Assembly: GCA_015233935.1 (NCBI GenBank)
Contig: JADFXB010000001.1
Location: 19,997 to 83,996 of the forward strand
Direction of reading: 5' to 3'
Length of the DNA stretch: 64,000 bases
Source: Magnetococcales bacterium
GTDB lineage: Bacteria > Pseudomonadota > Magnetococcia > Magnetococcales > JADFXB01
The notes under the pieces are model-generated. The model searched no databases, was not told the DNA's origin, and saw nothing but the letters and a program-made list of their open reading frames with translations. A program made the position numbers and the translations under genes. Shown here piece after piece: positions 20,988-43,076 of this stretch (positions are counted from its first letter, which is position 1; each line of letters opens with the position of its first letter).

Positions 20988-21323
20988 ATGAATACCAACA
21001 CGATCAAACACAACGAACACAATCAGAACAACCTGCATCACAATGGCCATGACCTGTTGCCCATGCTGGCAATGGAGTGGTTCCCGATGCAACCGGGTCT
21101 CCGTCTGGCAAACGGAATCAACCTGTACCGGGGTAGTTTTTTGTCCCAATTCTTCGGCGGTTCTATGAACAGCCGGGCCGTGTCTGAGGGGAAGGAAGCG
21201 GACTGGCTTCACACTCTCGGCGGCGGGACTACTCACACTGACAATCAGTGCGGCCAGTCAAGGAAGACGAATACAGGGGAAGGAAGAGATGGAAACAGCC
21301 TACGGCTGGAAGGCCAAACTTGA
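20988..21323 (+). CDS. Hypothetical small protein overlapping the recombinase start
   Basis: RBS-like caggag before ATG; no recognised domain. Confidence 0.3.
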   Translation: MNTNTIKHNEHNQNNLHHNGHDLLPMLAMEWFPMQPGLRLANGINLYRGSFLSQFFGGSMNSRAVSEGKEADWLHTLGGGTTHTDNQCGQSRKTNTGEGRDGNSLRLEGQT

Positions 21324-22272
21324 CAAAATCCTCCGTGAGCATATCCGGGGTTCCAGTCGGCATCCGGGGAAATCGGTATCGATCCAAACCCAGGTTGCCC
21401 GGCGGGCTGTCTTGTTCATGGCGTTCAAAACATTGCGGGAAGATTTGGGGTTCAGGATTGAGGAGCCGGACAACCTCAAACCAAAACACGTTGAAGCGTT
21501 GGCAAAATTTTGGGAGGAATCCAACTTATCGGCATCCACCATACAGAACCGAATCAGCCACATGAGGGTATTTGCCGGATGGATAAACAAACAGGGAATG
21601 ATCCAAAGTCCCTGTGAATATCTGGCCGACCCGCAAAGGGGAAAACGTACCCTTGTTGCTGAAAAGGATCGATCATGGGAAGGCAACGGCATAGACCTGG
21701 TCCAGGTGCTTGAGTCGGTTAAAGCTGCCGATCCATGGATTGCCATCCAGCTTGAACTGCAAGCGGCACTGGGATTACGGAGGCAAGAAAGTTGGCGTCT
21801 CCGTCCTGGTATCGATTGGAACCATAGTTCGGACGTTCATGTTTTTCGGGGAACCAAGGGAGGGAGGAGCAGGCGAGTACCGGTTGACACCGAAGCCAAG
21901 GTTGAAGTTTTGCAACGCGCCCTGGCCATGGCTGGCCCGGATGGTTCCATGATGCCAGCCAACTACACCCTGAAACGGTGGTTATCCCACTATGATTATT
22001 TCCTTCAAAAATTGGGGATCACCAAGCAAGGGCTTGGGGTAACCAGTCATGGCCTACGCCATGAATATGTCCATGGCCGATACCAAGAGAGAATGGGAGT
22101 ACCGGCACCGGTACGCGGCGGGGAAAAACCAGCCATGACCACCGATGAACGGCGGGTTGCCGAGAGACACATTTCGGAAGAAATGGGCCACTCCCGACCA
22201 TCCATTGTAACAGCCTATAGCGGCTCAAACCGGAAGACAAAGACTGTCAGGAAACCATCAAATTTAGGATGA
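21289..22272 (+). CDS. Phage-type tyrosine recombinase (integrase-domain protein)
   Basis: ALGLRRQESWRLRPG (Arg I region), VTSHGLRHEYVHGRY (HxLRH), EEMGHSRPSIVTAYSG (GHS...Y). Confidence 0.85.
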   Translation: METAYGWKAKLDKILREHIRGSSRHPGKSVSIQTQVARRAVLFMAFKTLREDLGFRIEEPDNLKPKHVEALAKFWEESNLSASTIQNRISHMRVFAGWINKQGMIQSPCEYLADPQRGKRTLVAEKDRSWEGNGIDLVQVLESVKAADPWIAIQLELQAALGLRRQESWRLRPGIDWNHSSDVHVFRGTKGGRSRRVPVDTEAKVEVLQRALAMAGPDGSMMPANYTLKRWLSHYDYFLQKLGITKQGLGVTSHGLRHEYVHGRYQERMGVPAPVRGGEKPAMTTDERRVAERHISEEMGHSRPSIVTAYSGSNRKTKTVRKPSNLG

Positions 22273-24668: not shown

Positions 24669-24920
24669 ATGTTGCACGCCATAGAAGAAGAGGTGATCCT
24701 CCCCGCTGACGGCAAACTGCCGGATTCGTTTCATGCGGCCTTTGGACGCAGGGCCAGGGTCATCGTGCTGTTGCCGGACCCCGTCGAAGGGACAGAGTCT
24801 GACCAGGATGACGCGCAACGGTTGATGGCGTTCGCCGGAACCATCGACTGGCCCATGGACGATCCTGTGGCCTGGCAACGGCAACAGCGGGATGAATGGG
24901 ATCGGCCATGGGATCGCTGA
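24669..24920 (+). CDS. Putative antitoxin paired with PIN toxin
   Basis: 84-aa-class ORF, overlaps the PIN gene start; MLHAIEEEVILPADGKLPDSF..RARVIVLLP resembles antitoxin N-termini. Confidence 0.65.
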   Translation: MLHAIEEEVILPADGKLPDSFHAAFGRRARVIVLLPDPVEGTESDQDDAQRLMAFAGTIDWPMDDPVAWQRQQRDEWDRPWDR

Positions 24921-25336
24921 ACTTTCTGCTCGACACCAACGCGGTCATCTACCTGCACAAGGGATTATTGAAGGATCCCTTGCCCCCAGGCCGCATGGCG
25001 ATTTCGTTCATCACCGACATCGAATTGCGCAGCTTCCCTGGCCTGCAAAGCGAACAGGAAGCCTGGTTGGCGCGATTCCTCGCCAACGTTCAACACATTG
25101 GTTTATCCCATGAAATCAAGGAAACCGCCATCCGGTTGCGTCGCCTCTATCGACTCAGGATTCCGGATGCCCTCATTGCCGCCAGTGCCACCCTCCACGG
25201 CGCGGTATTGCTGACCAATGACGATCAACTGCACAAGGTGTCCGAGTTGGTTTGTCGCAGATTGGAATTGATCGCCCCAGCCTCCAGACTTGGAAAAAAC
25301 ATTGCCGCAAATGTGGCGGGGATTCTGGAGGAGTGA
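24908..25336 (+). CDS. PIN-domain (VapC-like) toxin
   Basis: NFLLDTNAVIYLHKG...SFITDIELRSFPGL...RIPDALIAASATLHGAVLLTNDDQL. Confidence 0.9.
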   Translation: MGSLNFLLDTNAVIYLHKGLLKDPLPPGRMAISFITDIELRSFPGLQSEQEAWLARFLANVQHIGLSHEIKETAIRLRRLYRLRIPDALIAASATLHGAVLLTNDDQLHKVSELVCRRLELIAPASRLGKNIAANVAGILEE

Positions 25337-26505: not shown

Positions 26506-27541
26506 CATCGTCCCCCTGCCCGCCGATTACGCTACCTGGCTCGCCGAACTCAAGGCCCGCATCCACAACGCCCAGCAACGAGCCGCGCTGGCGGTCAATC
26601 GGGAGTTGGTGTTGCTCTACTGGCAGATCGGACGGGATATCCTGGCGCGGCAGGGGCGGGAGGGATGGGGGGCCAAGGTTATCGAACGGCTGGCCCAGGA
26701 TCTGCGCGGTGCCTTCCCGGAGATGAAGGGGTTTTCCCGCGCCAACCTCATGTACATGCGCGCCTTTGCCGAGGCCTGGCCCGATGCTGAAATCGTCCAA
26801 CAGGCTGTTGGACAATTGCCCTGGGGCCACAACCTGGTGCTGTTGGCCAAGCTCAAGGCCCCCGATCAACGGCTGGCCTATGCCCATCGCGCCATCCAAC
26901 ACGGCTGGTCGCGCAATGTGCTGGCCATCCACATCGAGCGGCGTTTGTTGGAGCGGGAAGGAAAAGCCGTCAGCAATTTCTCCCTGCAGCTACCCAAACC
27001 CCATTCGGATCTTGCCCAGGAATCCCTCAAGGATCCCTATCTCTTCGACTTTTTGGGCGTAGGTAACGAAGCAGGCGAGCGAGCCATGGAAGAGGCCATC
27101 GTTCACCACATCACCGGGTTTCTCCTGGAACTGGGCGCGGGTTTCGCCTTCGTCGGACGGCAGGTCCATCTGGAGGTGGGCGGCGAGGATTTCTTCATCG
27201 ACCTGCTTTTCTACCATCTGAAATTGCGCTGCTATGTGGTGATCGAACTCAAGGCCGGGGCCTTCAAGCCGGAGCATACCGGCCAACTCGGTTTCTACCT
27301 GAGCGCGGTGGATGGGGAGCTGAAGTCGGAACACGACAACCCGACCATTGGCCTGCTGCTGTGCCGGAGCAAAAACAAGGTGGTTGCCGAATACGCCCTG
27401 CGGGATTCCAGCCAGCCCATGGGGGTGGCCGAATATCAACTGATCGAGGCCCTGCCCGCCGAGTTGCAGACCAGCCTGCCCAGCATCGAGGCCATCGAGC
27501 AGGCCCTGTCCGGCGAAACCGCAGCGGACGAAACCCCATGA
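26498..27541 (+). CDS. YhcG/DUF1016-type PDDEXK nuclease-family protein
   Basis: NRELVLLYWQIGRDIL...WGAKVIERLAQDLR...FIDLLFYHLKLRCYVVIELKAGAFKPEHTGQLGFYLSAVD. Confidence 0.93.
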   Translation: MPDIVPLPADYATWLAELKARIHNAQQRAALAVNRELVLLYWQIGRDILARQGREGWGAKVIERLAQDLRGAFPEMKGFSRANLMYMRAFAEAWPDAEIVQQAVGQLPWGHNLVLLAKLKAPDQRLAYAHRAIQHGWSRNVLAIHIERRLLEREGKAVSNFSLQLPKPHSDLAQESLKDPYLFDFLGVGNEAGERAMEEAIVHHITGFLLELGAGFAFVGRQVHLEVGGEDFFIDLLFYHLKLRCYVVIELKAGAFKPEHTGQLGFYLSAVDGELKSEHDNPTIGLLLCRSKNKVVAEYALRDSSQPMGVAEYQLIEALPAELQTSLPSIEAIEQALSGETAADETP

Positions 27542-30500
27542 GCAGCCACGCCTACAGCGAAGATCAGCTTGTGGAGCAACCCGCCCTCGGGTTGTTGGCC
27601 ACCCTGGGGTGGCGGACAGTGTCGGCCATGGAGGAGACTTTCGGCCCCACCGGCATGCTGCAACGGGAAACCCGAGGCGAAGTGGTGCTGACCACCCGCC
27701 TGCATGCTGCCCTGGTACGCCTCAACCCCAACCTTCCCCCCGAGGCCATCACCGCCGCCATGGACGAACTGGCCCGCGACCGCTCGGCCATGAGCCTGGA
27801 GGCGGCCAACCGGGAGATCTACCGGTTGCTCAAGGAGGGTGTCCGGGTTTCCATGCCCGACCGGGAACATGGCGGACAAAAGAACGAGCGGCTCCGCGTC
27901 GTGGACTGGGAGATTGCAGAGAACAACGACTTCCTGGCCGTCAGCCAATTCAGCGTCACCGGCATGCTTTATACCTGCCGACCGGATCTGGTCGGTTTCG
28001 TCAATGGCCTGCCGTTGGTGGTGATGGAGTTCAAGAAACCCGGCGTGTCGGCCCGCGCCGCCTTCGACGAAAACCTGACCCACTACAAGCAACAGGTTCC
28101 CGCCCTCTTCTGGTTCAACGCCCTGCTCATCGCCTCCAATGGTACCGATAGCCGCGTCGGTTCCCTCACGGCGGATTGGGGACGGTTTTTCGAGTGGAAG
28201 CGCATCGAACGTGAGGATGAACCCCGCCGGGTGTCACTGGAAGTGATGCTGAAGGGTGTCTGCGACCGGACACGGCTGCTGGATTTGGTGGAAAACTTCA
28301 CCCTCTTCTCCGAACACAAGGCCGGGCTGATCAAGATCATCGGTCAGAACCACCAATACCTGGGTGTGAACAACGCCATTGCCTCCATGCTGGCGGCGCG
28401 GCAACTGGGCCATGGCCGCGCCGGTGTCTTCTGGCAGACCCAGGGTAGCGGCAAGAGCTTTTCCATGGTCTTTTTCGCCCAAAAGGTGTTGCGCAAGTTG
28501 GCGGGCAACTGGACCTTCGTGGTGGTGACCGACCGGGTGGAACTGGATGAGCAGATTGCCAAAACCTTCAAGGCCACTGCCGCCGTGAGCGAGACCGAGG
28601 GCGACCAGTGCCACGCCTCAAGCGGCATCCATCTCCGCGAACTGTTGCGCGGCAACCATCGCTACGTTTTCACCCTGGTCCACAAGTTCCAGACCCCGGA
28701 ATTGCTTTCCGACCGTTCCGATGTGATCGTTCTGACCGACGAGGCCCACCGCAGCCAATATGACACCCTGGCCCTGAACATGCGCGCCGCCCTGCCCAGG
28801 GCACTTTTCCTTGCCTTTACCGGAACGCCGCTCATTGCCGGGGAGGAGCGCACCCGAGAGGTATTCGGTGAATATGTCTCCATCTACGACTTCCAGCAGT
28901 CGGTGGAGGACGGGGCCACGGTGCCGCTGTTTTACGAAAACCGCACACCGGAATTGCAGCTCGTCAACCCGGAGTTGAACGAGGAGATCTATCGTCTGAT
29001 CGAGGAGGCGGAACTCGACCCGGAACAGGAGGCGAAACTGGAACGGGAACTCTCCCGCCAATACCACATCCTCACCCGTGACGACCGGCTGGAAACGGTG
29101 GCCAAGGATATTGTAGAACACTTTCTGGGGCGCGGCTTCGTGGGCAAGGCGATGGTGGTCACCATCGACAAGGCCACCGCCCTCAGAATGCACGACAAGG
29201 TGCGCCAATACTGGCGGGCGGAAACCGAACGGGTGAGGAATGAACTCTTCCGCCCCGACCTCGCGCCAAGCCGCCAGGCCGAGCTGTTGCGGCGTCTGGA
29301 TGTTCTCTCCACCACGGATATGGCACTGATCGTCTCGCCCGGCCAAAACGAAATAGCCAATATGAAGAAACTGGGACTGGACATTGAACCGCATCGCAAG
29401 CGGATGAACGAGTCGCAGCCGTCCCTGGACGAAAAATTCAAGGACACCAAGGATCCGTTGCGGCTTGTATTTGTCTGTGCCATGTGGCTCACCGGCTTCG
29501 ATGCGCCAAGTTGCTCGACAGTCTATCTTGACAAACCCATGCGCAACCATACCCTGATGCAGACCATCGCCCGTGCCAACCGGGTCTTTCCCGGCAAGCA
29601 CAGTGGCGTAATCGTGGATTATGCCAACGTCTTTGCCTCCCTGGAAAAGGCACTGGCGATCTACGGTGCGGGCAAGGGTGGTCAGAACCCGGTCAAAGAC
29701 AAGGGGAAGCTGGTCGAGGAACTACGCAGCTCCGTGGTCGAGGCAACCGCATTCTGCGCCACCCATGGGGTTGCGCTCCCGGAGATCGAACAGCTCCCCG
29801 CAGGCGGCATGGAACGGTTGCAGCGCATCGAGGATGCCATAAACGCCTTGATTTCGCCGGACTCTGTGCGCCGGGAGTTTTTCGCCCACGAACGCTTGGT
29901 GGCCACCCTGTATCGTGCGGTCAAACCCGATCCCGTCGTGTTGGAATTTTCGGAACGGGTGTCTTCCATCAGCACCATCGCCATGGCCATCCGCGCCAAA
30001 CTCAATCCGAATCCGCCGGACATTTCTCAGGTGATGGGTGACATCAACACCCTGCTGGATGATTCCATCACCGGCATGACCATCCAGGATCACGGGCCAC
30101 CCGCCCTGGACCTCTCCAGGATCAATTTCGAGGCACTGGCCCAACGATTCAAACAGTCCAGACACAAGAACACCGAACTGGAGGTTCTCAAGGCAGCAAT
30201 CCGCGCCCAGGTGGAAAAACTCATCCGCCTCAACCGCACCCGCGCCGATTTCGCCCAGAAATTCGAGGAACTCATCGAAAGCTACAACTCAGGAAGCCGC
30301 AGCATTGAAGAGCTGTTCGAGAAGCTGGTGGCGTTGAGCCGCAGTTTGAACGAAGAGCAGGAGAGGCACGTCCGCGAAAACATGACCGAAGAGGAACTGG
30401 TCATCTTCGACATCCTCACCCGTCCCGCGCCGGAATTGAGTCTGGAGGAACGTGCCGAGGTGAAAAAAGTGGCGAGGGAACTGCTGGAGCGGATCAAGCA

Positions 30501-30696
30501 ACTGCTGGTCCTTAACTGGCGGCAGAAGGCAGCGTCCCGCTCCCAGCTCAAACTCGCCATTGAGGACACGCTGGATTCCGGCCTGCCGCGTGTGTACACC
30601 CCAGAAATTTACCATTTGAAATGTTCAGTCGTTTTTGAGCATTTTTATGAAAGCTATCCTGAACGAAATGCCAGCGTTTATGTGGTCGCAGCATAA
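27538..30696 (+). CDS. hsdR: Type I restriction enzyme subunit R
   Basis: FWQTQGSGKSFSMVF Walker A, LTDEAHRSQYD, AFTGTPL, LDKPMRNHTLMQTIARANRV. Confidence 0.97.
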   Translation: MSSHAYSEDQLVEQPALGLLATLGWRTVSAMEETFGPTGMLQRETRGEVVLTTRLHAALVRLNPNLPPEAITAAMDELARDRSAMSLEAANREIYRLLKEGVRVSMPDREHGGQKNERLRVVDWEIAENNDFLAVSQFSVTGMLYTCRPDLVGFVNGLPLVVMEFKKPGVSARAAFDENLTHYKQQVPALFWFNALLIASNGTDSRVGSLTADWGRFFEWKRIEREDEPRRVSLEVMLKGVCDRTRLLDLVENFTLFSEHKAGLIKIIGQNHQYLGVNNAIASMLAARQLGHGRAGVFWQTQGSGKSFSMVFFAQKVLRKLAGNWTFVVVTDRVELDEQIAKTFKATAAVSETEGDQCHASSGIHLRELLRGNHRYVFTLVHKFQTPELLSDRSDVIVLTDEAHRSQYDTLALNMRAALPRALFLAFTGTPLIAGEERTREVFGEYVSIYDFQQSVEDGATVPLFYENRTPELQLVNPELNEEIYRLIEEAELDPEQEAKLERELSRQYHILTRDDRLETVAKDIVEHFLGRGFVGKAMVVTIDKATALRMHDKVRQYWRAETERVRNELFRPDLAPSRQAELLRRLDVLSTTDMALIVSPGQNEIANMKKLGLDIEPHRKRMNESQPSLDEKFKDTKDPLRLVFVCAMWLTGFDAPSCSTVYLDKPMRNHTLMQTIARANRVFPGKHSGVIVDYANVFASLEKALAIYGAGKGGQNPVKDKGKLVEELRSSVVEATAFCATHGVALPEIEQLPAGGMERLQRIEDAINALISPDSVRREFFAHERLVATLYRAVKPDPVVLEFSERVSSISTIAMAIRAKLNPNPPDISQVMGDINTLLDDSITGMTIQDHGPPALDLSRINFEALAQRFKQSRHKNTELEVLKAAIRAQVEKLIRLNRTRADFAQKFEELIESYNSGSRSIEELFEKLVALSRSLNEEQERHVRENMTEEELVIFDILTRPAPELSLEERAEVKKVARELLERIKQLLVLNWRQKAASRSQLKLAIEDTLDSGLPRVYTPEIYHLKCSVVFEHFYESYPERNASVYVVAA

Positions 30697-30750: not shown

Positions 30751-33700
30751 ATGAACTCGCGACCGGTTGACGTTCTCATCGTGGCAGCTCTGGAGGAAGA
30801 GCGGGACGCGGTTCTGAAACTGCTGGCCGGGGACTGCCTGCCAACTCGCCATGAGGGAAGCAATTTTCACCGTTGTACCCTGTACTGGAAAAACGGTCAA
30901 GGGAGTTATGCAATCGTCCTGGCTTGCTTGGGCGACATGGGAAACGTCAACGCCGCCGCAGTAACAACAGAATATTGTATGCGCATGTCTCCCTCCTACG
31001 TCGCCCTGGTAGGCATCGCCGGAGGGGTCAAGGAAGAGCCACGCCAACTGGGGGATCTGCTCATCGCCGAGGAGATTTTTCCCTATGAACGGGGCAAGGT
31101 GACACCCGAAGGATTCATCTACAGGGGCACGTCCCTGAGGGCGGATGCGCAACTCCTGGAATTCGCGCGCAAATTGTCATCCCCTAGGAAGAAGAGGGAT
31201 CTCAGTTCCCACAACAGCGCACGACGCCCAACAAAAACACCCCCAAGCCATTTCGGCAAGATTGGATCGGGGGAAAAGGTTATCGCAGATGACGCCGCCA
31301 TTCCGTGCCCCCCTGGACGTGATCCTCCCATTGGGGTGGAAATGGAAGCCTACGGTACCGCATTGGCCGCAAAAAAATGGGGAGCCGGATTCTTTTTCGT
31401 CAAGGGCATCTGCGACTGGGCGGACGTGACGAAGAACGACGACTGGCACGCCTACGCCGCCGAGACTGCCGCCGTTTTTCTCATCGACCTGCTCAGAAGC
31501 AGGCCCTTCCCGAAACGGGAACCGCCCCCCGCGCCCCTGCCTGCCCAGGGAATCCAGATGGGACCGGTTGTCGGTGCGGATCTCGTCAACGCCTCTTGGG
31601 TCGCGATCACCGGAGCGGTGGACGACTTGACCAGGAAACGTCTGGAGTCCATTCGCGAGAATTTCCAGCAAGGCCTGGTGGATACGGCGTGGCGAGAAGT
31701 CCGCGAACTCAAGGAAGCCCCAACTTTTCACGGCCTTTCACCGGAGACCCGTGCCAAGGTTCTGGGTCTGGAGGCATCCCTGGTCCTGGAGCGCAGGGAG
31801 GATGTGGAAGAAGCACAGCGGTTGGCGAATCAAGCTGAGATTTGGTGTCCTGGCTCCTGTCGTCGGTTGATCACCATCCTCACGCTACGTGCCGAGGGGC
31901 ACGAGGCCGCGTTGGCGCAACTTCCCGATCCTGATAACAGCGACGATATCCACCTCAAGGCGTCGCTGTTGGTGGAAACCGGGCGGGGGCAAGAGGCACT
32001 GGATTTACTGGACTCCTCGGAACTCCATGTCTGGACTCAAACCGAACCCCAGCCAAAACGGAACCGGGTCGAGGCGGAAACCCTGCGGTTGCGCGCCTGG
32101 GCACTGCTGGATCTTGGACGCCCCGACGAGGCGTTGGAATCGGCTCACCAAGCCCTGCAAAAACGCCCCGGCGACCAGGCGATGCGCCTTACCGCAGCCG
32201 CCATGACGTATTTCAATGCCATTTTCCCAGCATCCTTGCCCCAGGATCACGCATCCTGGCTCATACCCCTGCCGATTCCGATGCTGCCCGCCACACACGC
32301 AGCTCTGGACGCGCTGCAACGGGCTGAGGACGAGTTTGTCAAATTGATTGCATCCCCTGAGCTGTCCAAGACGCAGCGAGTGCGGATTGAGGGCTATCGC
32401 TTAGCCAGTCTGGGCAACCATCCGGCACGCCAGGACGAAGCCGCTGCGTATTGCAAGGAGCTGCTTGATCTCGACCGCACCCACCCTGACGCCATCCTCT
32501 GGAGCTTGGCACGAAGGTTCAGGATTGATCTGCGGCGCACCATGGACAAGCTGGAAGACTTAACTGCCTCTGGGAAAGCTTCCCTCCAACAGCACCTTTC
32601 ACAATGGATTTGCCTTGAGGTCAAGGGCAAACCCAGCCTCCTGTCCCGCGCGGTGGCGCAGGCAGAAAAACAATTTCGAGAGCAGCGACAGGAATCTTTG
32701 TGGCGATTCTGGCGCACCCGTTCCCTGATAGCGTCAGGAAAAACAGACGAGGCCCAAAAAGAAGCCGCCCAGTTGCCCCCCGGCGCAATCTCCCGCCAAG
32801 CCGGGATTATGATTGAGCAGGAACGCGCCACGCACACCAGAGATTGGCGTCCCCTGGCCGATCACCTGCTGCGGTTGTACGACGATTGTGGAGATGCCGA
32901 GTATCTGCTGCATGGCTGTGGCTTGTTGGCTGAGTGTGGTAACTGGGATGCGGTGGCAACGAGGGCGGACGCCTTGTCAACCCTCGTGGCGAACCTTGAA
33001 TCCCTGCGTCTTATCGCCTTCGCCCTGTGGAACACGGGACGCTGGCAGGATTGCCTTGATCAACTGAAACATCACTCAACCTTGATCCAGGGAAACCAAC
33101 CCAATGTCCAGAATCTACGCACCCTGAAAACCATGTGCCTGCGCACCCTGGGACACATTCCCGAGGCGGTGCGGGAGATGGAATCCCTGTTTGAACAGCA
33201 GCCCAGTGAAACTCACGGTGTCAATCTGGTGCGGCTGTATCGATCCTATGGCAACCAGGACGATGTTCCCCACGTTATTCGACGCATCCTGCCGTCCGGG
33301 CAACTCAGGACGGAAACCCGTCTTGAGCTGGCCCACACCGTTATCGCCTCGGACCCCGACTTGGCCCGTTATTTGATACAAGAGCTTCCCAACGAAGCTC
33401 TTGATGATCGTTCAGCCCTCGCGAAACTGAATCTGGCTTTGCGACTGGGGTTGAAGGAGGACACAGAAGCCCTGATGCCACGCCTGCCTGCGCTGGCTCA
33501 AATCCCTGGAAGCGGTGTGCAATCGATGTCAGTCGAGGATCTCCTCGAATTTCGCAAGCAGCAGATGGCAAGTCTGGAAAACGCCGTAAATGTCTATCGC
33601 AGCGGCGCGGCCCCCATTCATTTGCTTTGCGCCGTGACGAGTTGGCCCCTGGCATTGCTGTATCATCTGCGTCTTATGGGACACTGGAGCGACCCACGAA

Positions 33701-36700
33701 AGAACCTGGACGATCCCCTGTTCATCCGCCATGGCGGATGGTTCGACCTCGCCAAGCCGGACGCCCCTCCCGCGCCAGGGTCCTGGTTTATCGACGTTAC
33801 CGCCTTGCTGCTTGCAGATTACCTAGGGTTGCTGGATTCACTGGAGCGACAATTTGCCCCCATCTGGGTGGCTGATGCCCTGCCCCAACTGCTCATGGAG
33901 ATGGTGAATAATCTGAAAAGCTTCTTCCCCCCCATTTCGGGATTCGCGTTTCTGACCGTGAATGAGCAGAGGAACCTAACCGATCGCCTCGACACCTTGC
34001 GTCGACGATTGGTTTTGGGGATCGAGATGGGAACCTATTGCCATGTTCCTCTGAATCAGGCGACCCGATCGGACATGGAGAAACAACCAGATCAACTCTC
34101 TGAGCACTCCATTGGCAAGGTATTGGCAAGCATGTTTGGTTCCATGCCTGCGGCGGTGCGGACCATCTGGTGCGACGACCGTTTCATCTCAGGTTTAGGA
34201 AACATCAACGGACTTTCCATCCTTGGCATCCAGGATGTGCTGGGGTTTCTGGAGCATGCGGGACTGTTAAGCAATGCGGACGTCCTCGCGGCGGTGCGCC
34301 GGTTGCGTGCGGCGGATCTTCGCCATCTCGTGCTGGAAGACCGGGAAATCCTGGCGGCGTTGCGCGCCGCGCCGGTGAAGGCGGGAAGGGTGGAGAAATC
34401 CCCCGACCTGGTTCAACTTCGACGTTCTTTGGCGGCCATGCTCAGGCAATCCGAATGGTTGAATCACCCAGGCGAGATAAACGGTCAGAGGGTTGAGGGC
34501 GGTGAATGGATACATCTCATCCACCTGATGTTGGTAATCGTGGACAGCCTTGGGGCCTTGTGGACGTCGGCAGACGAACCGGAAGCCGACCTCTGGGCCA
34601 GGGCGGATTGGATCTGGAACAACCTATTCTTCCTTCCCGATCTGGGACGGGAGAATGGTTCGGCCATGGAACGGCTTCTGTTGCACAAGTTGGTGATGGC
34701 ATCCCTGACTTTACCCATGGCTGACTTGGGTACGGAACGTTCCCCACGCAAACGTTATTTCACTTGGTTGCAAAGCCGCTCTTTCTGGCGGCACCTCATG
34801 ACCAAACTAGAACACGTAAGAGATGTGACTCACACACTCAAGCAATTTTTCATGAGGCATTTCCGACCGGACCAGGACAAAAATGAAGCCTTGGCCGTAC
34901 GCATCCTTCTTGCCGACATGCCGGAACCCTTCTACACCGCCTTTACGGACGACTCGAACTTTGTAGCTTGGTTGAGGATTGCCAGGAAACAAGAAATTCT
35001 CATTGGCGAACTATCCTTTTCGTGGGATGAATTCTGGCAGCAGGCCGCCCAGGCGGTTGCGGGCCAGATGAGCGAGGTTCACTCGTTGGACAGCCAGAGG
35101 ACTTTTTCCCTGCAATGGACGCCCCGCGATGGAAAAACTGACGTATGCCTGACCTTGGCAGATGGACATGTAAGGATGAGCCTTGGAGACATTGGCCATC
35201 TACTGGACGAGCATCCAGAGACGCGCCAAGCTTGGTTGCGCAACCAGGCTTTTCTGTACGACATGGTCTCCGATACCACGGATGATGCCCTGGATGAGAT
35301 TGCGCGCCAGCACGATCCCACCCGGCGCGTCCACCTTTGGGAAAAGTGGAAAGCCAAGGGCGCGGAAGGATTCTACCGCCAATGGCACGATGAATTTCAG
35401 AGAACTGGGTCACTCACCTTGGCTCCCGACGCCCTGTTGCCACCTTCCGGGGCAAGCCTGCTTTGGCACGCACGACTGGAGTCGACAAACGATGCATCGT
35501 TCCCGGAGTGCCTGGACCGCGCGGCGCGGCGATTGCTGCGGGAAACAGGAGTGAAGACAACGTTGGAGCGACTCGCGGGCTTGCCCGTTCCCATGCCCGC
35601 CAGCCTCGTGGAGGCCATCGACACTCTTGATCCAAACGAGCGGACGCCTATGCTGCTCTCCCTGCTCCACAATGCCGCTTCCCCGGTAGCCATGGCCCAG
35701 GCCGTGCGCCTGCTGCTGCGCAACGTACCAAGTGCCGAGGTGGAAGCTGACCTCGCGCAATCCCTGTCCTATTGGACGAGCATAGGAGGCACGAATCAAA
35801 CCCAGGGCTTCCTGTCCTTGTTGGGCTGGATGCACCACGCCCTTACTGTTTGGTCGGAAGCCCGTGACTGGACCCCGGACTTGCTCATGGCCCTGGCCTG
35901 GATGCATTCCCATCGTTTGATGTTCGAGTTGAGGATGCTTAACGCGGATCCCACAGCAATCCATCGTGCCTTCCAGAATCCCGACCACCAATTGCCGGTT
36001 CTACACGGGATCTTCGAAGACGACAATGACGTATCCCTTCCGCAACGATCAACCCCGGAAGCCCTGCTCCTGCATTGCTTGAGCCATGCCATGGAAGGTC
36101 GTGCGGACCTTCTAGAACGTTTTCCTGCACTTGCCGACGCTGTGCGTGATCTGGTGTTTCCCCCATCTAAGAATGACAAGAGCTTTAACCACGCCCTGAT
36201 CATCGACACAACCTGCACGGACAATACACTGGGCAGCTTTCTGCAACATAGTCTGGACCTGACCCTGTTTTGCGGACTCGCGCCTCCCCAATTGGCCCCG
36301 CTCTTGTCCGAGGACTACCGTGCAGATATTCTCGACCATTATCTCAAGCAGCTCGAGGAGAACGACTTGGATCCCACGCGCTGGAACATCGTGGGATACC
36401 TCGTCCATCATGGTGTGAAACTCGACACCATAGCACCACGGCTGAACGCCCTGCTTGCGAACACGGACTTCGCCGCCGTGTGCCAGGCTAACCCGGAACA
36501 GGGTTTGTTGGCCTTGAAGCAAGGCGCAAGGATTGCCAACGCCCTTGATGATGTCATGGTGCTGGAGCGAATCGAAGCCCAGATGACTCCCTCCCTGAAA
36601 GCAGTCCTGCGTGGCAATTGCGAGGAGTACCCTCCTCCCGGCTTCCCATTCTGGCTCGAAGCAGCAATGATCATCGCCAAGACCAAGCCGACATCGGACC

Positions 36701-36909
36701 TGCGCGCCCAGGCCTTCTCTGCCTGGCTGCTCCAGGCAGAATATCTGGTGCCCTCGCTCGCACCATCTCCCGTGGGTCATCTGGCCCAACGCTTGAGCGA
36801 AGAACTCCCCACCGAACTGGCCCGGCATTTCTGGCAGGTGCTCTTTCATTCGCGCAGCCGCCCCGTCATAAAGGAGAAATTAATTGGCAGTGGGAATGGG
36901 GCGGGTTAG
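30751..36909 (+). CDS. Giant conflict-system-like protein: N-terminal nucleoside phosphorylase (MTAN/PNP) domain + TPR-like region + PIN-like domain + uncharacterised C-terminus
   Basis: PVDVLIVAALEEERDAV..VALVGIAGGVKEEPRQLGDLLIA..IGSGEKVIADD..VEMEAYG..VKGICDWAD; TPR-like helices aa ~280-950; SWFIDVTALLLADYLGLLDSLERQFAPIWVADAL PIN-like start at aa ~1011. Confidence 0.75.
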   Translation: MNSRPVDVLIVAALEEERDAVLKLLAGDCLPTRHEGSNFHRCTLYWKNGQGSYAIVLACLGDMGNVNAAAVTTEYCMRMSPSYVALVGIAGGVKEEPRQLGDLLIAEEIFPYERGKVTPEGFIYRGTSLRADAQLLEFARKLSSPRKKRDLSSHNSARRPTKTPPSHFGKIGSGEKVIADDAAIPCPPGRDPPIGVEMEAYGTALAAKKWGAGFFFVKGICDWADVTKNDDWHAYAAETAAVFLIDLLRSRPFPKREPPPAPLPAQGIQMGPVVGADLVNASWVAITGAVDDLTRKRLESIRENFQQGLVDTAWREVRELKEAPTFHGLSPETRAKVLGLEASLVLERREDVEEAQRLANQAEIWCPGSCRRLITILTLRAEGHEAALAQLPDPDNSDDIHLKASLLVETGRGQEALDLLDSSELHVWTQTEPQPKRNRVEAETLRLRAWALLDLGRPDEALESAHQALQKRPGDQAMRLTAAAMTYFNAIFPASLPQDHASWLIPLPIPMLPATHAALDALQRAEDEFVKLIASPELSKTQRVRIEGYRLASLGNHPARQDEAAAYCKELLDLDRTHPDAILWSLARRFRIDLRRTMDKLEDLTASGKASLQQHLSQWICLEVKGKPSLLSRAVAQAEKQFREQRQESLWRFWRTRSLIASGKTDEAQKEAAQLPPGAISRQAGIMIEQERATHTRDWRPLADHLLRLYDDCGDAEYLLHGCGLLAECGNWDAVATRADALSTLVANLESLRLIAFALWNTGRWQDCLDQLKHHSTLIQGNQPNVQNLRTLKTMCLRTLGHIPEAVREMESLFEQQPSETHGVNLVRLYRSYGNQDDVPHVIRRILPSGQLRTETRLELAHTVIASDPDLARYLIQELPNEALDDRSALAKLNLALRLGLKEDTEALMPRLPALAQIPGSGVQSMSVEDLLEFRKQQMASLENAVNVYRSGAAPIHLLCAVTSWPLALLYHLRLMGHWSDPRKNLDDPLFIRHGGWFDLAKPDAPPAPGSWFIDVTALLLADYLGLLDSLERQFAPIWVADALPQLLMEMVNNLKSFFPPISGFAFLTVNEQRNLTDRLDTLRRRLVLGIEMGTYCHVPLNQATRSDMEKQPDQLSEHSIGKVLASMFGSMPAAVRTIWCDDRFISGLGNINGLSILGIQDVLGFLEHAGLLSNADVLAAVRRLRAADLRHLVLEDREILAALRAAPVKAGRVEKSPDLVQLRRSLAAMLRQSEWLNHPGEINGQRVEGGEWIHLIHLMLVIVDSLGALWTSADEPEADLWARADWIWNNLFFLPDLGRENGSAMERLLLHKLVMASLTLPMADLGTERSPRKRYFTWLQSRSFWRHLMTKLEHVRDVTHTLKQFFMRHFRPDQDKNEALAVRILLADMPEPFYTAFTDDSNFVAWLRIARKQEILIGELSFSWDEFWQQAAQAVAGQMSEVHSLDSQRTFSLQWTPRDGKTDVCLTLADGHVRMSLGDIGHLLDEHPETRQAWLRNQAFLYDMVSDTTDDALDEIARQHDPTRRVHLWEKWKAKGAEGFYRQWHDEFQRTGSLTLAPDALLPPSGASLLWHARLESTNDASFPECLDRAARRLLRETGVKTTLERLAGLPVPMPASLVEAIDTLDPNERTPMLLSLLHNAASPVAMAQAVRLLLRNVPSAEVEADLAQSLSYWTSIGGTNQTQGFLSLLGWMHHALTVWSEARDWTPDLLMALAWMHSHRLMFELRMLNADPTAIHRAFQNPDHQLPVLHGIFEDDNDVSLPQRSTPEALLLHCLSHAMEGRADLLERFPALADAVRDLVFPPSKNDKSFNHALIIDTTCTDNTLGSFLQHSLDLTLFCGLAPPQLAPLLSEDYRADILDHYLKQLEENDLDPTRWNIVGYLVHHGVKLDTIAPRLNALLANTDFAAVCQANPEQGLLALKQGARIANALDDVMVLERIEAQMTPSLKAVLRGNCEEYPPPGFPFWLEAAMIIAKTKPTSDLRAQAFSAWLLQAEYLVPSLAPSPVGHLAQRLSEELPTELARHFWQVLFHSRSRPVIKEKLIGSGNGAG

Positions 36910-37477
36910 GTCGAGATGATGCTGACAACATGCACTGAGGTCATGTGAAATAGGCTAGACTTAATCTGACAAAAATTGGTCATGCGACTTTGGTTCATTG
37001 GTAGAAAATTCGGAAAACGAAGATGTGAAGATGGGGGCTACACTTCAAGAATGAAAAATTTCGCTTGTTCGAATATGAAAATACACGACCAAGAATTCTG
37101 GGGGCAACTTTGGGGGCATATGCAGAAGTATTTTCAGTAAATATATCGGAAAAAGTAGGCATTCATAATATTATTAAATAGCCCCTATCGCTACTGAATT
37201 CCCTTCCAGGGGGAATCAATGAATTCTCTAAACTCAGCTCTTGAGGAGCAATTAGGAATGCTTAGCATGGATTCTTCCCATAAATGTGGATTGGTTACAC
37301 CATAAATATAATAAATTTGTAATCCTCAATGGAGGAGGGTAAGGTATGTTTGTACGGAAGGATGCTCCCGTCAGAACTCAGTAATCCTGGTTCTGGCGAT
37401 ACCGCAGAGCCACGGTTCTGCGGACTGAACCCCGCAAGGGCAACTTTGTGGGGTTCTTTCATTATGGCCACTGGATG

Positions 37478-38197
37478 ATGCTTGTGAAACGTGCAGCAGT
37501 CTATATTGACGGATTCAACCTTTATCATGCCCTGAAAATTCTCGGGCTTGAAGAGTATAAATGGCTCAATATTCGCGCTCTGGTGGAAAACTTTTTACCA
37601 TCCTCCCAATATGAATCCCCTAATATTACCTATTTCAGTGCCTATGTCCACTGGATTCAAGAGTCCATGGCCCGCCAAAAACGATATGTGGCAGCTTTAC
37701 AGGCTGTTGGGGTAAATCCCGTCTTGGGAACATTTGCCAGAGACAAAGAGTATTCCTGCGATGCCTGTGGCAACAAAGCGCGTTACTACGTTGAGAAAAC
37801 CACAGATGTTCATATCGGCGTTTCCATGATGCAAGATGCCTGCAAGGGACACCATGACCTCTTGATGCTGGTGTCCGCAGATAGCGATTTCGCACCTGCT
37901 TTGCATCTTATCCGAAAATCATTCCCCTCCATCGAACTCAAGGTTCTGGTTCCGCCCGCTCAACAAGGAAGCAAGGCACTTCGGAAAGAAGTTGGTGCAA
38001 AAAACGTTTCACACATCAAACATATCCATGTACAACGCTCCCTGCTTGCGAGAGAATACCAAGTTGTGGGTAGAAATGAATCGATCATCCGCCCTTACAT
38101 ATACGACCCGCTTCCCATGTCTGATGATAAGCGTACCAAGCTGCAACAAGTGGATGCCATGTTCGAGTCTGTGGAGCGAAAACCCCGGAGTGATTGA
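37478..38197 (+). CDS. NYN-domain (LabA/DUF88-like) putative RNase
   Basis: RAAVYIDGFNLYHAL...KTTDVHIGVSMMQDACKGHHDLLMLVSADSDFAPAL. Confidence 0.9.
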   Translation: MLVKRAAVYIDGFNLYHALKILGLEEYKWLNIRALVENFLPSSQYESPNITYFSAYVHWIQESMARQKRYVAALQAVGVNPVLGTFARDKEYSCDACGNKARYYVEKTTDVHIGVSMMQDACKGHHDLLMLVSADSDFAPALHLIRKSFPSIELKVLVPPAQQGSKALRKEVGAKNVSHIKHIHVQRSLLAREYQVVGRNESIIRPYIYDPLPMSDDKRTKLQQVDAMFESVERKPRSD

Positions 38198-38347: not shown

Positions 38348-39517
38348 TCAAGAGGTTTTCCCAATCATGGCCTGTGCAGCCTTCTCCATGGATTTTCGTA
38401 CCGGGTCCAGATTGAGCCTGGCATAAATGGCTGTGGATTGTTGGGAGTAGTGACCAAGGGATTTTCCAATGACGGGAAGTGATGCTCCAGTGATGGCCTG
38501 CCATGATCCCATGGTGCGGCGCAGATCGTGGATGCGGGCATCCTCAATTTCGGCCCTGGCAAGAATTCGTTCCCACGCTTTGCGTGGCTCAACCAGGTGG
38601 CCCGTGGTTGATCGAGGGGACGGGAAAACCCACTCACTTAATGGGCCGTTTCCTTGCAAATTGGTCAGAATGTCTGCGGCCATGGGCACCAGGGGCACTG
38701 TCAAAGGACGTGGCTTGCCTCTGGTATTCTTGGTGGCCGGAATCCGCCACACCTGTTGTTCCAAGTCTATTTGATCCCAGCGCATGGCCTGGACGTTCTC
38801 CCGCCTGGCACCTGTCAACAGGGATAGCAGGAAAAAGGCGCGAGTTGATTCTGACTCCTCTAAAATGGAGGTCAGGAATCGCTCTATTTCCTCATTACTG
38901 AGGAATCTGGTCCTGCTCTCTTCTTGATACCTGCGAACCCCCAGACAAGGGTTTTCTCCTTCCCAAATACCCCATTCTTTCGCCCTGCCAAAGACAGACG
39001 AGATCAAAGCAATCACACGGTTGGCCATGGTGGGGTGTTTCTCGCCAATTTTCACATGGATCAATGCAATTTCCCGGCGGGTGATGCTGGAGAGCTTTTT
39101 TTTACCCATATCCTCTGCCAGGTGCAGACGAAAATAGGCTTCATCATCCTGCCAGGTCTTTTTACGGGGTTTTGCCCACCGCTCCATATAGGTGGCAAAA
39201 AGATCTGCGAAGGTGATCTCCTGTCGGGCATCCCGACGCATTTGAGCAGGATTTTCTCCATCTGTTGCCGCCGCATTGAGCCGAATGGCATGCCGCCGGG
39301 CATCATCGATGGACATTGCTGGCCAACGCCCCAGGGTAACTCGTTCTGGTTGGCCTCCTGGTATGCGTCGATACCAGGACCATGTTTTAATGCCATTGGA
39401 AGTGATACGAAGTTGCAGGCCAGGAACACGTTCATCCAACCAGGTATCACGTCCTTGCTGCGGTGGGACCAAGGCCACAACTGAGGCATGTGTGAACAAA
39501 ATTTTTCCACCAGCCAT
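38348..39517 (-). CDS. int: Tyrosine-recombinase integrase (DUF4102-type N-terminus)
   Basis: LLSLLTGARRENVQAMRWDQID, IHDLRRTMGSW, GKSLGHYSQQSTAIYARL; adjacent to tRNA fragment. Confidence 0.95.
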   Translation of the reverse strand: MAGGKILFTHASVVALVPPQQGRDTWLDERVPGLQLRITSNGIKTWSWYRRIPGGQPERVTLGRWPAMSIDDARRHAIRLNAAATDGENPAQMRRDARQEITFADLFATYMERWAKPRKKTWQDDEAYFRLHLAEDMGKKKLSSITRREIALIHVKIGEKHPTMANRVIALISSVFGRAKEWGIWEGENPCLGVRRYQEESRTRFLSNEEIERFLTSILEESESTRAFFLLSLLTGARRENVQAMRWDQIDLEQQVWRIPATKNTRGKPRPLTVPLVPMAADILTNLQGNGPLSEWVFPSPRSTTGHLVEPRKAWERILARAEIEDARIHDLRRTMGSWQAITGASLPVIGKSLGHYSQQSTAIYARLNLDPVRKSMEKAAQAMIGKTS

Positions 39518-41274: not shown

Positions 41275-42462
41275 ATGTTGCAAAGTATCCAAATGAAGAA
41301 CCTGCTCTCCTACGGAGTGGATAGTGAACCTATTCCCTTGCGCCCCCTCAATTTAATCATCGGTCCCAATGGATCGGGGAAATCCAATCTTCTGGAGGGA
41401 ATCGCCCTGCTACAGTCCGCTCCCTCACAACTCGTCGCGCCCATACGGGAAGGTGGTGGTATCCATGATTGGCTGTGGAAAGGAACAAAACCACCTGTTA
41501 CCGCCAGCTTGGAGATTGTGGTAAAACTGCCCGCCAATCAACATGCAATCCCCCTTCGTTATCGTATCGATTTCACGGCATCCGGGAACCGATTTGAAAT
41601 TATCGACGAACGTATTGAAAATGCAGAAAAACTGGAAGGTCATTCAGAACCCTATTTTTATTATCGCTATGAAAACAATCGTCCCGTCCTGAATATCAAA
41701 GCAACACCCAATAGCAAGACCGCCAAAAAAAGATATTTGCAACGTGAAGATGTGGACCCAGAAAAATCAATTTTGGCCCAACGCCGTGATCCAGATATCT
41801 ATCCAGAAATCACCAATCTGGCAGATACGCTTGCCAAAATCCGCATCTATCGGGATTGGTCTCTAGGGCGTTATACCCCTCCACGTCTTCCTCAACCCTC
41901 CGACTTGCCAAATCAATGGTTGGAAGAAAATGCACGCAACCTGGGGTTGGTACTCAATCGACTGAGAAGAGACCATGAAACAAAAAGCAGACTGTTAGAA
42001 AGTTTCCGGGTCATCTATTCGGAGGCAGAAGATTTTGATGTGATAATTGAAGCTGGAACGGTTCAAATTTTTGTCCAGGAAAGTCGATTCAACGTGCCTG
42101 CCACCCGGCTTTCCGATGGCACCTTACGTTATCTGTGCCTTTTGGCCATCCTCTATGATCCTGCACCACCGCCACTGGTTTGCATCGATGAACCTGAACT
42201 CGGTCTTCATCCTGATCTGATTCACAGCATTGCAATGGCGTTGCGATTTGCCAGTTCAAGAACTCAAGTGATTGTCACAACCCATTCGACTGCATTGGTA
42301 GATGCATTTACCGATGATCCTGAGGTTGTCCTTGTTTGCGAAAAAAGGGACGGCTGTTCCATAGTTCATCGCCTTGACGCGCAACGTTTGCAGCCTTGGC
42401 TTGAGAAATACCGTCTCGGTTCCCTGTGGAGCAGCGGCGAAATTGGAGGAAATCGATGGTAA
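41275..42462 (+). CDS. AAA (SMC/RecF/OLD-like) ATPase
   Basis: PLNLIIGPNGSGKSNLLEGI Walker A, LSDGTLRYLCLLAIL signature, LVCIDEPELGLHPDLI Walker B, VIVTTHSTALVDAF. Confidence 0.93.
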   Translation: MLQSIQMKNLLSYGVDSEPIPLRPLNLIIGPNGSGKSNLLEGIALLQSAPSQLVAPIREGGGIHDWLWKGTKPPVTASLEIVVKLPANQHAIPLRYRIDFTASGNRFEIIDERIENAEKLEGHSEPYFYYRYENNRPVLNIKATPNSKTAKKRYLQREDVDPEKSILAQRRDPDIYPEITNLADTLAKIRIYRDWSLGRYTPPRLPQPSDLPNQWLEENARNLGLVLNRLRRDHETKSRLLESFRVIYSEAEDFDVIIEAGTVQIFVQESRFNVPATRLSDGTLRYLCLLAILYDPAPPPLVCIDEPELGLHPDLIHSIAMALRFASSRTQVIVTTHSTALVDAFTDDPEVVLVCEKRDGCSIVHRLDAQRLQPWLEKYRLGSLWSSGEIGGNRW

Positions 42463-43076
42463 CCATCAAGCTTTACGTGGAAGGGGGCGGTGATACAAGT
42501 CAGTTGCACAGCCTCTGCCGTCAAGGATTTCATCAATTTCTTGAGAAGGCAGGGTTTAAAGGTAGGCAACCCCGCATCGTGGCCTGCGGAGGAAGGCAAC
42601 AAGCCTATGATCGATTTGTGACTGCATGCCGTCAATCATCCCATGAAATACCCATGTTGTTGGTGGATAGTGAGGACTTTGTTTCAGCCACTTCCCCATG
42701 GGTGCACTTGGTGCAACATGATGATTTCAGTCGTCCAAACGAAGCAAGCGACGAACAAGGCCATCTGATGGTGGTTTGCATGGAATCCTGGTTTCTTGCC
42801 GATAAAGACGAGCTTGCCAACTATTTTGGGCGCGGTTTTAATGATAAGGCATTACCAGGACATACGGATATTGAATCCATCAGCAAAAATGATGTTTATC
42901 AAAGCATTCTGAAAGCAACATCACAATGCAGAACCAAAGCTCCTTATGGAAAAGGAGAGCATTCCTTTGCCATTTTGGGACGTATATCTCCCCATAAGGT
43001 AAAGACGGCCAGCCCGTGGGCAGCACGATTCCTCAAAATACTGGATGAGATGACCACTCCTACCAAAAAATTCTGA
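42456..43076 (+). CDS. DUF4276-like / TOPRIM-like protein, paired with the AAA ATPase
   Basis: KLYVEGGGD...LLVDSED pattern; start at 42456 overlaps the end of the ATPase gene. Confidence 0.75.
   Translation: MVTIKLYVEGGGDTSQLHSLCRQGFHQFLEKAGFKGRQPRIVACGGRQQAYDRFVTACRQSSHEIPMLLVDSEDFVSATSPWVHLVQHDDFSRPNEASDEQGHLMVVCMESWFLADKDELANYFGRGFNDKALPGHTDIESISKNDVYQSILKATSQCRTKAPYGKGEHSFAILGRISPHKVKTASPWAARFLKILDEMTTPTKKF

What the first reader, a model, noticed from the sequence alone, without database searches (positions are those of the whole stretch)
30751..36909. 2052-aa PNP-TPR-PIN-like protein appended to a type I R-M operon: candidate effector-sensor conflict system
Seen: an intact 6.1-kb ORF on the same strand, 54 bp after hsdR. 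The N-terminus has nucleoside-phosphorylase motifs (IVAALEEERDAV, GIAGG, VEMEAYG, KGICDWAD with the likely catalytic Asp kept). Next is a long TPR-like helical region with an embedded PIN-like block (SWFIDVTALLLADYLGLLDSLERQF) near aa 1011, then about 900-1000 aa I cannot assign. Established knowledge: nucleoside-phosphorylase domains occur as effectors in NTP-dependent conflict systems, and I recall Aravind-group descriptions of TPR-GreAB-C-PIN systems with swappable N-terminal effectors. Inference: this is such a protein with an MTAN/PNP effector, and its C-terminal half may hold an uncharacterised sensor.
Basis: partly seen in the sequence, partly recalled or inferred. Interest (0 to 1): 0.85.

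Follow-up and report, generated by a model that had tools for sequence, protein, structure and literature searches.

The report
PNP-armed variant of TPR-PIN defence protein
This is a giant, intact bacterial protein that most likely acts as a one-piece suicide alarm against viruses, joining a nucleotide-destroying enzyme to a conserved RNA-cutting scaffold; relatives carry the two parts as separate genes that both bear 'death-like' adaptor domains, so it is a distinct variant of a system already predicted in the literature.

Summary
Window 30751-36909 is one intact ORF (2052 aa) with a strong ribosome-binding site, 54 bp after hsdR, in a Magnetococcales MAG. It carries an N-terminal nucleoside-phosphorylase (PNP) domain with catalytic positions kept, TPRs, an HTH that Pfam ties to double-PIN proteins, a PIN domain (below Pfam's cut-off, but homologous to the TPR-GreAB-C-PIN type by profile comparison) and about 900 mostly helical residues with a sub-threshold 'permuted GreAB-C' signal.

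Long-form homologues in Magnetococcales, cyanobacteria, Azospirillum and Martelella share the core from about aa 280 but differ at the N-terminus: caspase, weak Mrr-like nuclease, or bDLD3 death-like adaptor. In two Magnetococcales genomes (a third by eye) PNP and core are separate neighbouring genes, both with bDLD3; the window protein fuses them directly, without bDLD3.

Best reading: a swappable-effector, abortive-infection-type conflict protein, a sister variant of canonical TPR-GreAB-C-PIN (Kaur et al. 2021): the canonical GreAB-C was not found and the PIN is not C-terminal. The window's PIN is a single hybrid of the outer halves of a double PIN, probably formed by deletion. Function is untested; both structure models had low confidence. 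The hsdR linkage does not recur.

The parts
30751..36909 (+). 2052-aa fused effector-core protein (P0001)
   Evidence: Intact ORF with ribosome-binding site; full-length core homologues
30772..31473 (+). PNP (nucleoside phosphorylase/nucleosidase) effector domain, aa 8-241
   Evidence: PF01048 E=1.3e-14; PADLOC PDC-M60C 1.9e-30 and Effector PN-superfamily 3.2e-24; Foldseek best hit MTAN E=3.6e-7 on a low-confidence model
31414..31416 (+). Catalytic Asp candidate D222 in ICDWAD
   Evidence: Kept in all PNPs aligned; aligns with the Asp of the SD motif of MTAN
31603..33525 (+). TPR-type helical superhelix, about aa 285-925
   Evidence: TPR_2, TPR_14 and TPR_19 above cut-off at 442-484; core profile matches solved TPR proteins
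33535..33738 (+). HTH_upst_double_PIN domain, aa 929-996
   Evidence: PF24407 E=3.3e-7, above cut-off; HTH profile aligns with the HTH of canonical TPR-GreAB-C-PIN proteins, E=2.6e-7
33790..34191 (+). Single (hybrid) PIN domain, aa 1014-1147; acidic residues D1015 and D1142/D1143
   Evidence: PF20698 E=0.021, sub-threshold; canonical-PIN profile E=3e-5, cyanobacterial PIN1 N-half E=4e-11, PIN2 C-half E=8e-14
34198..34650 (+). Post-PIN helical region, about aa 1150-1300, shared with canonical proteins
   Evidence: Profile-profile E=3.9e-5 alone; HTH-PIN-helical module 1.5e-10 over 332 columns
35002..35148 (+). Candidate permuted GreAB-C domain, aa 1418-1466
   Evidence: PF24388 E=0.006 on the fragment (sub-threshold); 5 of 10 homologues match this fragment, best 0.0013; the main beta-rich island of the C-half in a low-confidence model
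35188..36906 (+). C-terminal helical region, about aa 1480-2052, unassigned; proposed scaffold or sensor
   Evidence: Conserved over its length in long-form homologues; no Pfam or PDB sequence match; predicted helical at low confidence
27361..30696 (+). hsdR of the adjacent type I R-M operon (neighbour, not part of the conserved system)
   Evidence: HsdR domains; linkage not repeated in relatives

Best explanation
A single-chain abortive-infection-type conflict protein. Shown by sequence: a PNP effector joined to a conserved long-form core (TPR superhelix, HTH, PIN, helical region, candidate permuted GreAB-C, helical tail), and a core that in other genomes carries other N-terminal modules. Inferred: the core senses infection, perhaps through nucleic acid or a transcription complex; its PIN cuts RNA; on triggering, the PNP modules are brought together and destroy adenine nucleotides (by analogy with the Detocs PNP effector, which cleaves ATP), stopping the cell and the phage. 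In relatives that keep PNP and core as two genes, paired bDLD3 death-like domains probably make the link that is covalent here.
For: PNP HMM hit with catalytic positions kept; 36% identity to a PNP-SAVED protein encoded beside a CBASS cyclase and to an HNH-PNP-EAD7 protein, 30% to a receiver-PNP protein in a Detocs-like gene set, all sharing a [CS]DxADxxKxD motif, against 13% to the genome's only other PNP-superfamily gene. N-terminal swap on a shared core: bDLD3, caspase (PF00656 1.9e-9), weak Mrr-like nuclease hits. Split form with bDLD3 on both neighbouring genes in G044 and G033 (E 3e-19 to 4.5e-26), the same layout read by eye in G041. HTH-PIN module homologous to canonical TPR-GreAB-C-PIN, whose published model includes PNPase effectors and EAD-linked activation. 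Detocs PNP cleaves ATP (PMC11249213). Defence-type neighbours.
Against: No functional data. Both AlphaFold models had low confidence (mean pLDDT about 48). PIN and permuted GreAB-C hits are below Pfam cut-offs. The substrate of the PNP (ATP or another nucleoside/nucleotide) cannot be read from sequence. What the core senses is unknown. The Mrr-like hits are weak (0.0032-0.076) and two N-termini (L043, L045) are unassigned.
Confidence: 0.68

Rival explanations
1. The PIN domain is the main effector and the PNP domain is a sensor or signal maker: it binds or cleaves a nucleotide that marks infection and licenses RNA cleavage by the PIN.
For: PIN acidic residues D1015 and D1143 are invariant in all ten long-form homologues whatever the N-terminus. 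Aravind-group papers predicted that PNP domains may make signals by releasing a base (PMC7159879).
Against: PNP occupies the slot that elsewhere holds a caspase or nuclease-like domain, which are effectors; related PNPs sit in the effector position of CBASS-like and Detocs-like loci.
Confidence: 0.17
2. It is an accessory subunit of the adjacent type I R-M system, for example a second line of defence triggered when restriction fails.
For: Same strand, 54 bp after hsdR, with its own ribosome-binding site; a homologue in G029 lies about 20 bp after a DUF499 ATPase gene preceded by a DUF1156 methylase.
Against: Other homologues are not beside R-M genes; Kaur et al. describe the related system as mostly standalone genes.
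Confidence: 0.1
3. A metabolic or housekeeping nucleosidase fused to a scaffold, without a conflict role.
For: NCBIfam best hits are futalosine hydrolase and MTA/SAH nucleosidase models, far below their cut-offs; nearest solved structures are MTANs.
Against: N-terminal swapping, sporadic presence (core in 6 of 48 same-order genomes, counting a contig-end fragment), plasmid and island locations, bDLD3 partners.
Confidence: 0.04

Closest known systems
TPR-GreAB-C-PIN conflict system (Kaur et al. 2021, PMC8195603; PF20698)
   Same: Variable N-terminal effector including PNPase, TPR region, HTH-PIN-helical module homologous by profile (E=1.5e-10 over 332 columns)
   Different: About 2050 aa instead of 1100-1460; no canonical GreAB-C found between TPR and PIN; PIN is internal with about 900 aa after it; candidate permuted GreAB-C after the PIN
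Double-PIN long-form proteins (Pfam PF24407/PF24388; here L039-L045 in cyanobacteria, Azospirillum, Martelella, Magnetococcales)
   Same: Whole core from about aa 280 to the end, including HTH_upst_double_PIN (found by Pfam in all but L044; sub-threshold in L043)
   Different: Window and its two closest full-length relatives have one PIN: the core profile skips positions 757-895 there; other N-termini
Split bDLD3-PNP / bDLD3-core gene pairs of Magnetococcales (L002, L003; probably L011/L004)
   Same: Same PNP family (37-38% identity) and same single-PIN core (27-28%)
   Different: Two genes, each with bDLD3; the window has a direct fusion and no bDLD3
PNP effectors of Detocs and CBASS (PNP-SAVED)
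   Same: PNP domain with a shared [CS]DxADxxKxD motif, 30-36% identity
   Different: Different sensors and partners; no SAVED or receiver domain here

Membership tests
TPR-GreAB-C-PIN system | Variable N-terminal effector or EAD | tested here: met
   PNP here; bDLD3, caspase, weak Mrr-like in homologues
TPR-GreAB-C-PIN system | TPR region | tested here: met
   TPR_2, TPR_14 and TPR_19 above cut-off
TPR-GreAB-C-PIN system | Canonical GreA/B-C domain between TPR and PIN | tested here: not met
   No PF01272 hit; canonical GreAB-C profile finds nothing before the HTH (E=0.52) or in the tail (E=0.69)
TPR-GreAB-C-PIN system | PIN domain of the PF20698 type | tested here: met
   E=0.021 below cut-off, but profile-profile E=3e-5 alone and 1.5e-10 for HTH-PIN-helical
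TPR-GreAB-C-PIN system | PIN near the C-terminus | tested here: not met
   PIN at aa 1014-1147 of 2052
Double-PIN long form (PF24407) | HTH_upst_double_PIN domain | tested here: met
   E=3.3e-7, above cut-off
Double-PIN long form (PF24407) | Two tandem PINs | tested here: not met
   One hybrid PIN; insert absent
Double-PIN long form (PF24407) | Permuted GreAB-C (PF24388) | tested here: inconclusive
   E=0.006 on the fragment, below cut-off; 5 of 10 homologous fragments match
PNP-type immune effector | PNP fold with catalytic residues | tested here: met
   PF01048 1.3e-14; E16/E17, E199, D222; MTAN fold hits on a low-confidence model
PNP-type immune effector | ATP nucleosidase activity on infection | not testable with these tools
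   Needs enzymology
STAND/NTP-dependent conflict system | STAND or other NTPase domain | tested here: not met
   No NTPase family hit in P0001

The most novel reading that the evidence does not exclude
The window protein is a natural one-piece version of a death-domain-coupled two-gene immune device: a direct PNP-core fusion replaces the bDLD3-bDLD3 link, and a deletion across a tandem PIN pair rebuilt one PIN with a full acidic set from two complementary halves. In double-PIN relatives the outer halves may form one active site with a degenerate PIN nested between them.
Probability: 0.3. Interest if true: 0.7.

Novelty: new variant of a known kind. Interest (0 to 1): 0.5.

Why it matters
The class was predicted in 2021, and no experimental test of it was found in the papers searched here. 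Fused and split forms within one bacterial order offer a natural comparison: if the fused form works without bDLD3 and the split form needs it, that would show that bacterial death-like domains serve to bring an effector to its sensor. The single/double PIN contrast gives a direct test of which PIN halves make the active site.

Tried and rejected
AlphaFold of aa 870-2052 and of the PNP domain with three-row alignments gave low confidence (pLDDT 48.4 and 48.6), so the C-half model was not searched and the PNP Foldseek result is used only as support. Viral-contig scans found no relative. Direct genome-contig scan with P0001 found none; the alignment A2 found two. PF24388 by genome search rang nowhere, controls included, so it says nothing either way. 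Linear profile comparison of canonical GreAB-C with the candidate permuted region gave no match, which cannot exclude a permuted homologue. Weak A7 hits outside the long forms fall mostly in TPR-type columns and were set aside. Literature searches on the TPR-GreAB-C-PIN and 'double PIN' names gave nothing relevant beyond PMC8195603. Rejected: housekeeping MTAN, artefactual ORF, obligate R-M subunit.

Full report
Observation. The ORF at 30751-36909 (+) is intact, 2052 aa, with a ggaggaggg ribosome-binding site before its ATG and 54 bp after hsdR. The flanking genes are hsdM, a VapC-like PIN gene, hsdS, a YhcG/DUF1016 gene and hsdR upstream, and a NYN gene, an integrase and a Fic gene downstream. 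Two named relatives are Magnetococcales MAGs, and the genomes with the split form belong to the same order as the window's own genome.

Domains. Pfam gives PF01048 at aa 8-241 (1.3e-14), TPR models at 442-484, PF24407 HTH_upst_double_PIN at 929-996 (3.3e-7), all above cut-off, and PF20698 PIN-TPR-GreABC at 1014-1147 (0.021, below cut-off). Scanned alone, aa 1380-1510 hit PF24388 Permuted_GreAB-C (E=0.006, below cut-off) at aa 1418-1466, and 5 of the 10 homologous fragments match it, best 0.0013. The rest of the C-half has no Pfam or PDB sequence match.

Relatives. In 61 genomes, P0001 found near-full-length core homologues in G044 and G033 and a partial one in G041. There the PNP is a separate gene directly upstream of the core gene. 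Pfam finds bDLD3 at the C-end of the PNP proteins P0004-P0006 (E 3e-19 to 2.8e-23) and at the N-end of the cores P0002 and P0003 (4.5e-26, 4.5e-21). The G041 core and the G024 pair show a similar sequence by eye and were not scanned. Together, searches find the long core in six of the 48 same-order genomes, counting a contig-end fragment in G046.

Other long forms. tblastn of plasmids found cores in cyanobacteria (Allocoleopsis, Leptolyngbya, Nostoc, Gloeocapsopsis), Azospirillum and, over a shorter stretch, Martelella; G029 came from the PF24407 search. Their N-termini differ: Leptolyngbya has a caspase domain (1.9e-9); three cyanobacteria and Martelella give weak Mrr_cat hits (0.0032-0.076); Azospirillum and G029 are unassigned. 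This is the constant-core, variable-effector layout described by Kaur et al. for TPR-GreAB-C-PIN (PMC8195603).

PIN history. The homologues outside the window/P0002/P0003 group carry an insert inside the PIN. By hhalign the window PIN matches the N-half of cyanobacterial PIN1 (4e-11) and the C-half of PIN2 (8e-14), while the canonical PIN aligns over its length (3e-5). The core profile A7 skips positions 757-895 in the window, G033 and G044 but runs straight through G029. The three single-PIN proteins form a clade (98/96) beside Azospirillum and Martelella (99/98), which favours a deletion; the root is a midpoint, so this is inference.

Relation to canonical proteins. HTH-PIN-helical modules align at E=1.5e-10 over 332 columns, the HTH alone at 2.6e-7. 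The canonical GreAB-C profile finds nothing before the HTH or in the tail. The window protein is therefore filed as a sister variant, not a canonical member.

PNP kinship. The domain is 36-38% identical to the bDLD3-PNPs, to a PNP-SAVED protein next to a CBASS cyclase, and to an HNH-PNP-EAD7 protein, and 30% to a receiver-PNP protein in a Detocs-like set in Agrobacterium. It is 13% identical, over a poor alignment, to the only other PNP-superfamily gene found in the genome. Foldseek's best hits are MTANs (3.6e-7), on a low-confidence model. The Detocs PNP is reported to cleave ATP to adenine and ribose-5'-triphosphate (PMC11249213); ATP as substrate here is inference.

Mechanism. Shown: architecture, swapping, split/fused pair, conserved residues. 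Inferred: sensing by the core, RNA cleavage by the PIN, nucleotide destruction by the PNP, bDLD3 pairing as the non-covalent counterpart of the fusion. No activity was tested here.

Context. The R-M neighbour is not conserved: G029 has a DUF1156 methylase and DUF499 ATPase upstream, G033 has caspase, CHAT and STAND-like genes upstream, plasmid copies have varied neighbours.

Noticed in passing
L016:3-9636: Upstream of the PNP-bDLD3 gene in Magnetococcales DCbin2: caspase (PF00656), CHAT-TPR, a short NACHT/STAND-like and a HEAT-repeat ORF, a dense apoptosis-like island.
   Followed up: partly
L060:6617-13469: Agrobacterium plasmid: HNH-PNP-EAD7 protein followed by a 1155-aa protein without Pfam hits, a response regulator and a receiver-PNP protein, resembling Detocs with a second PNP gene.
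   Followed up: partly
window 24896-25336: VapC-like PIN gene inside the type I R-M operon, overlapping the start of the called hsdS ORF.
   Followed up: no
window 37448-38197: NYN-domain gene matching PADLOC HEC-09 (4.6e-43), about 540 bp after the finding.
   Followed up: no
window 21289-22272 and 38348-39517: Tyrosine integrase genes on either side of the R-M and P0001 block, suggesting a mobile island.
   Followed up: no
window 41275-43076: AAA_21 (AbiEii-type) gene followed by a DUF4276 gene, a further defence-like pair.
   Followed up: no
L005:45-284: Contig-end fragment 74% identical to about the last 80 aa of the finding (G046), the closest relative seen; no more of the gene is held.
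   Followed up: no
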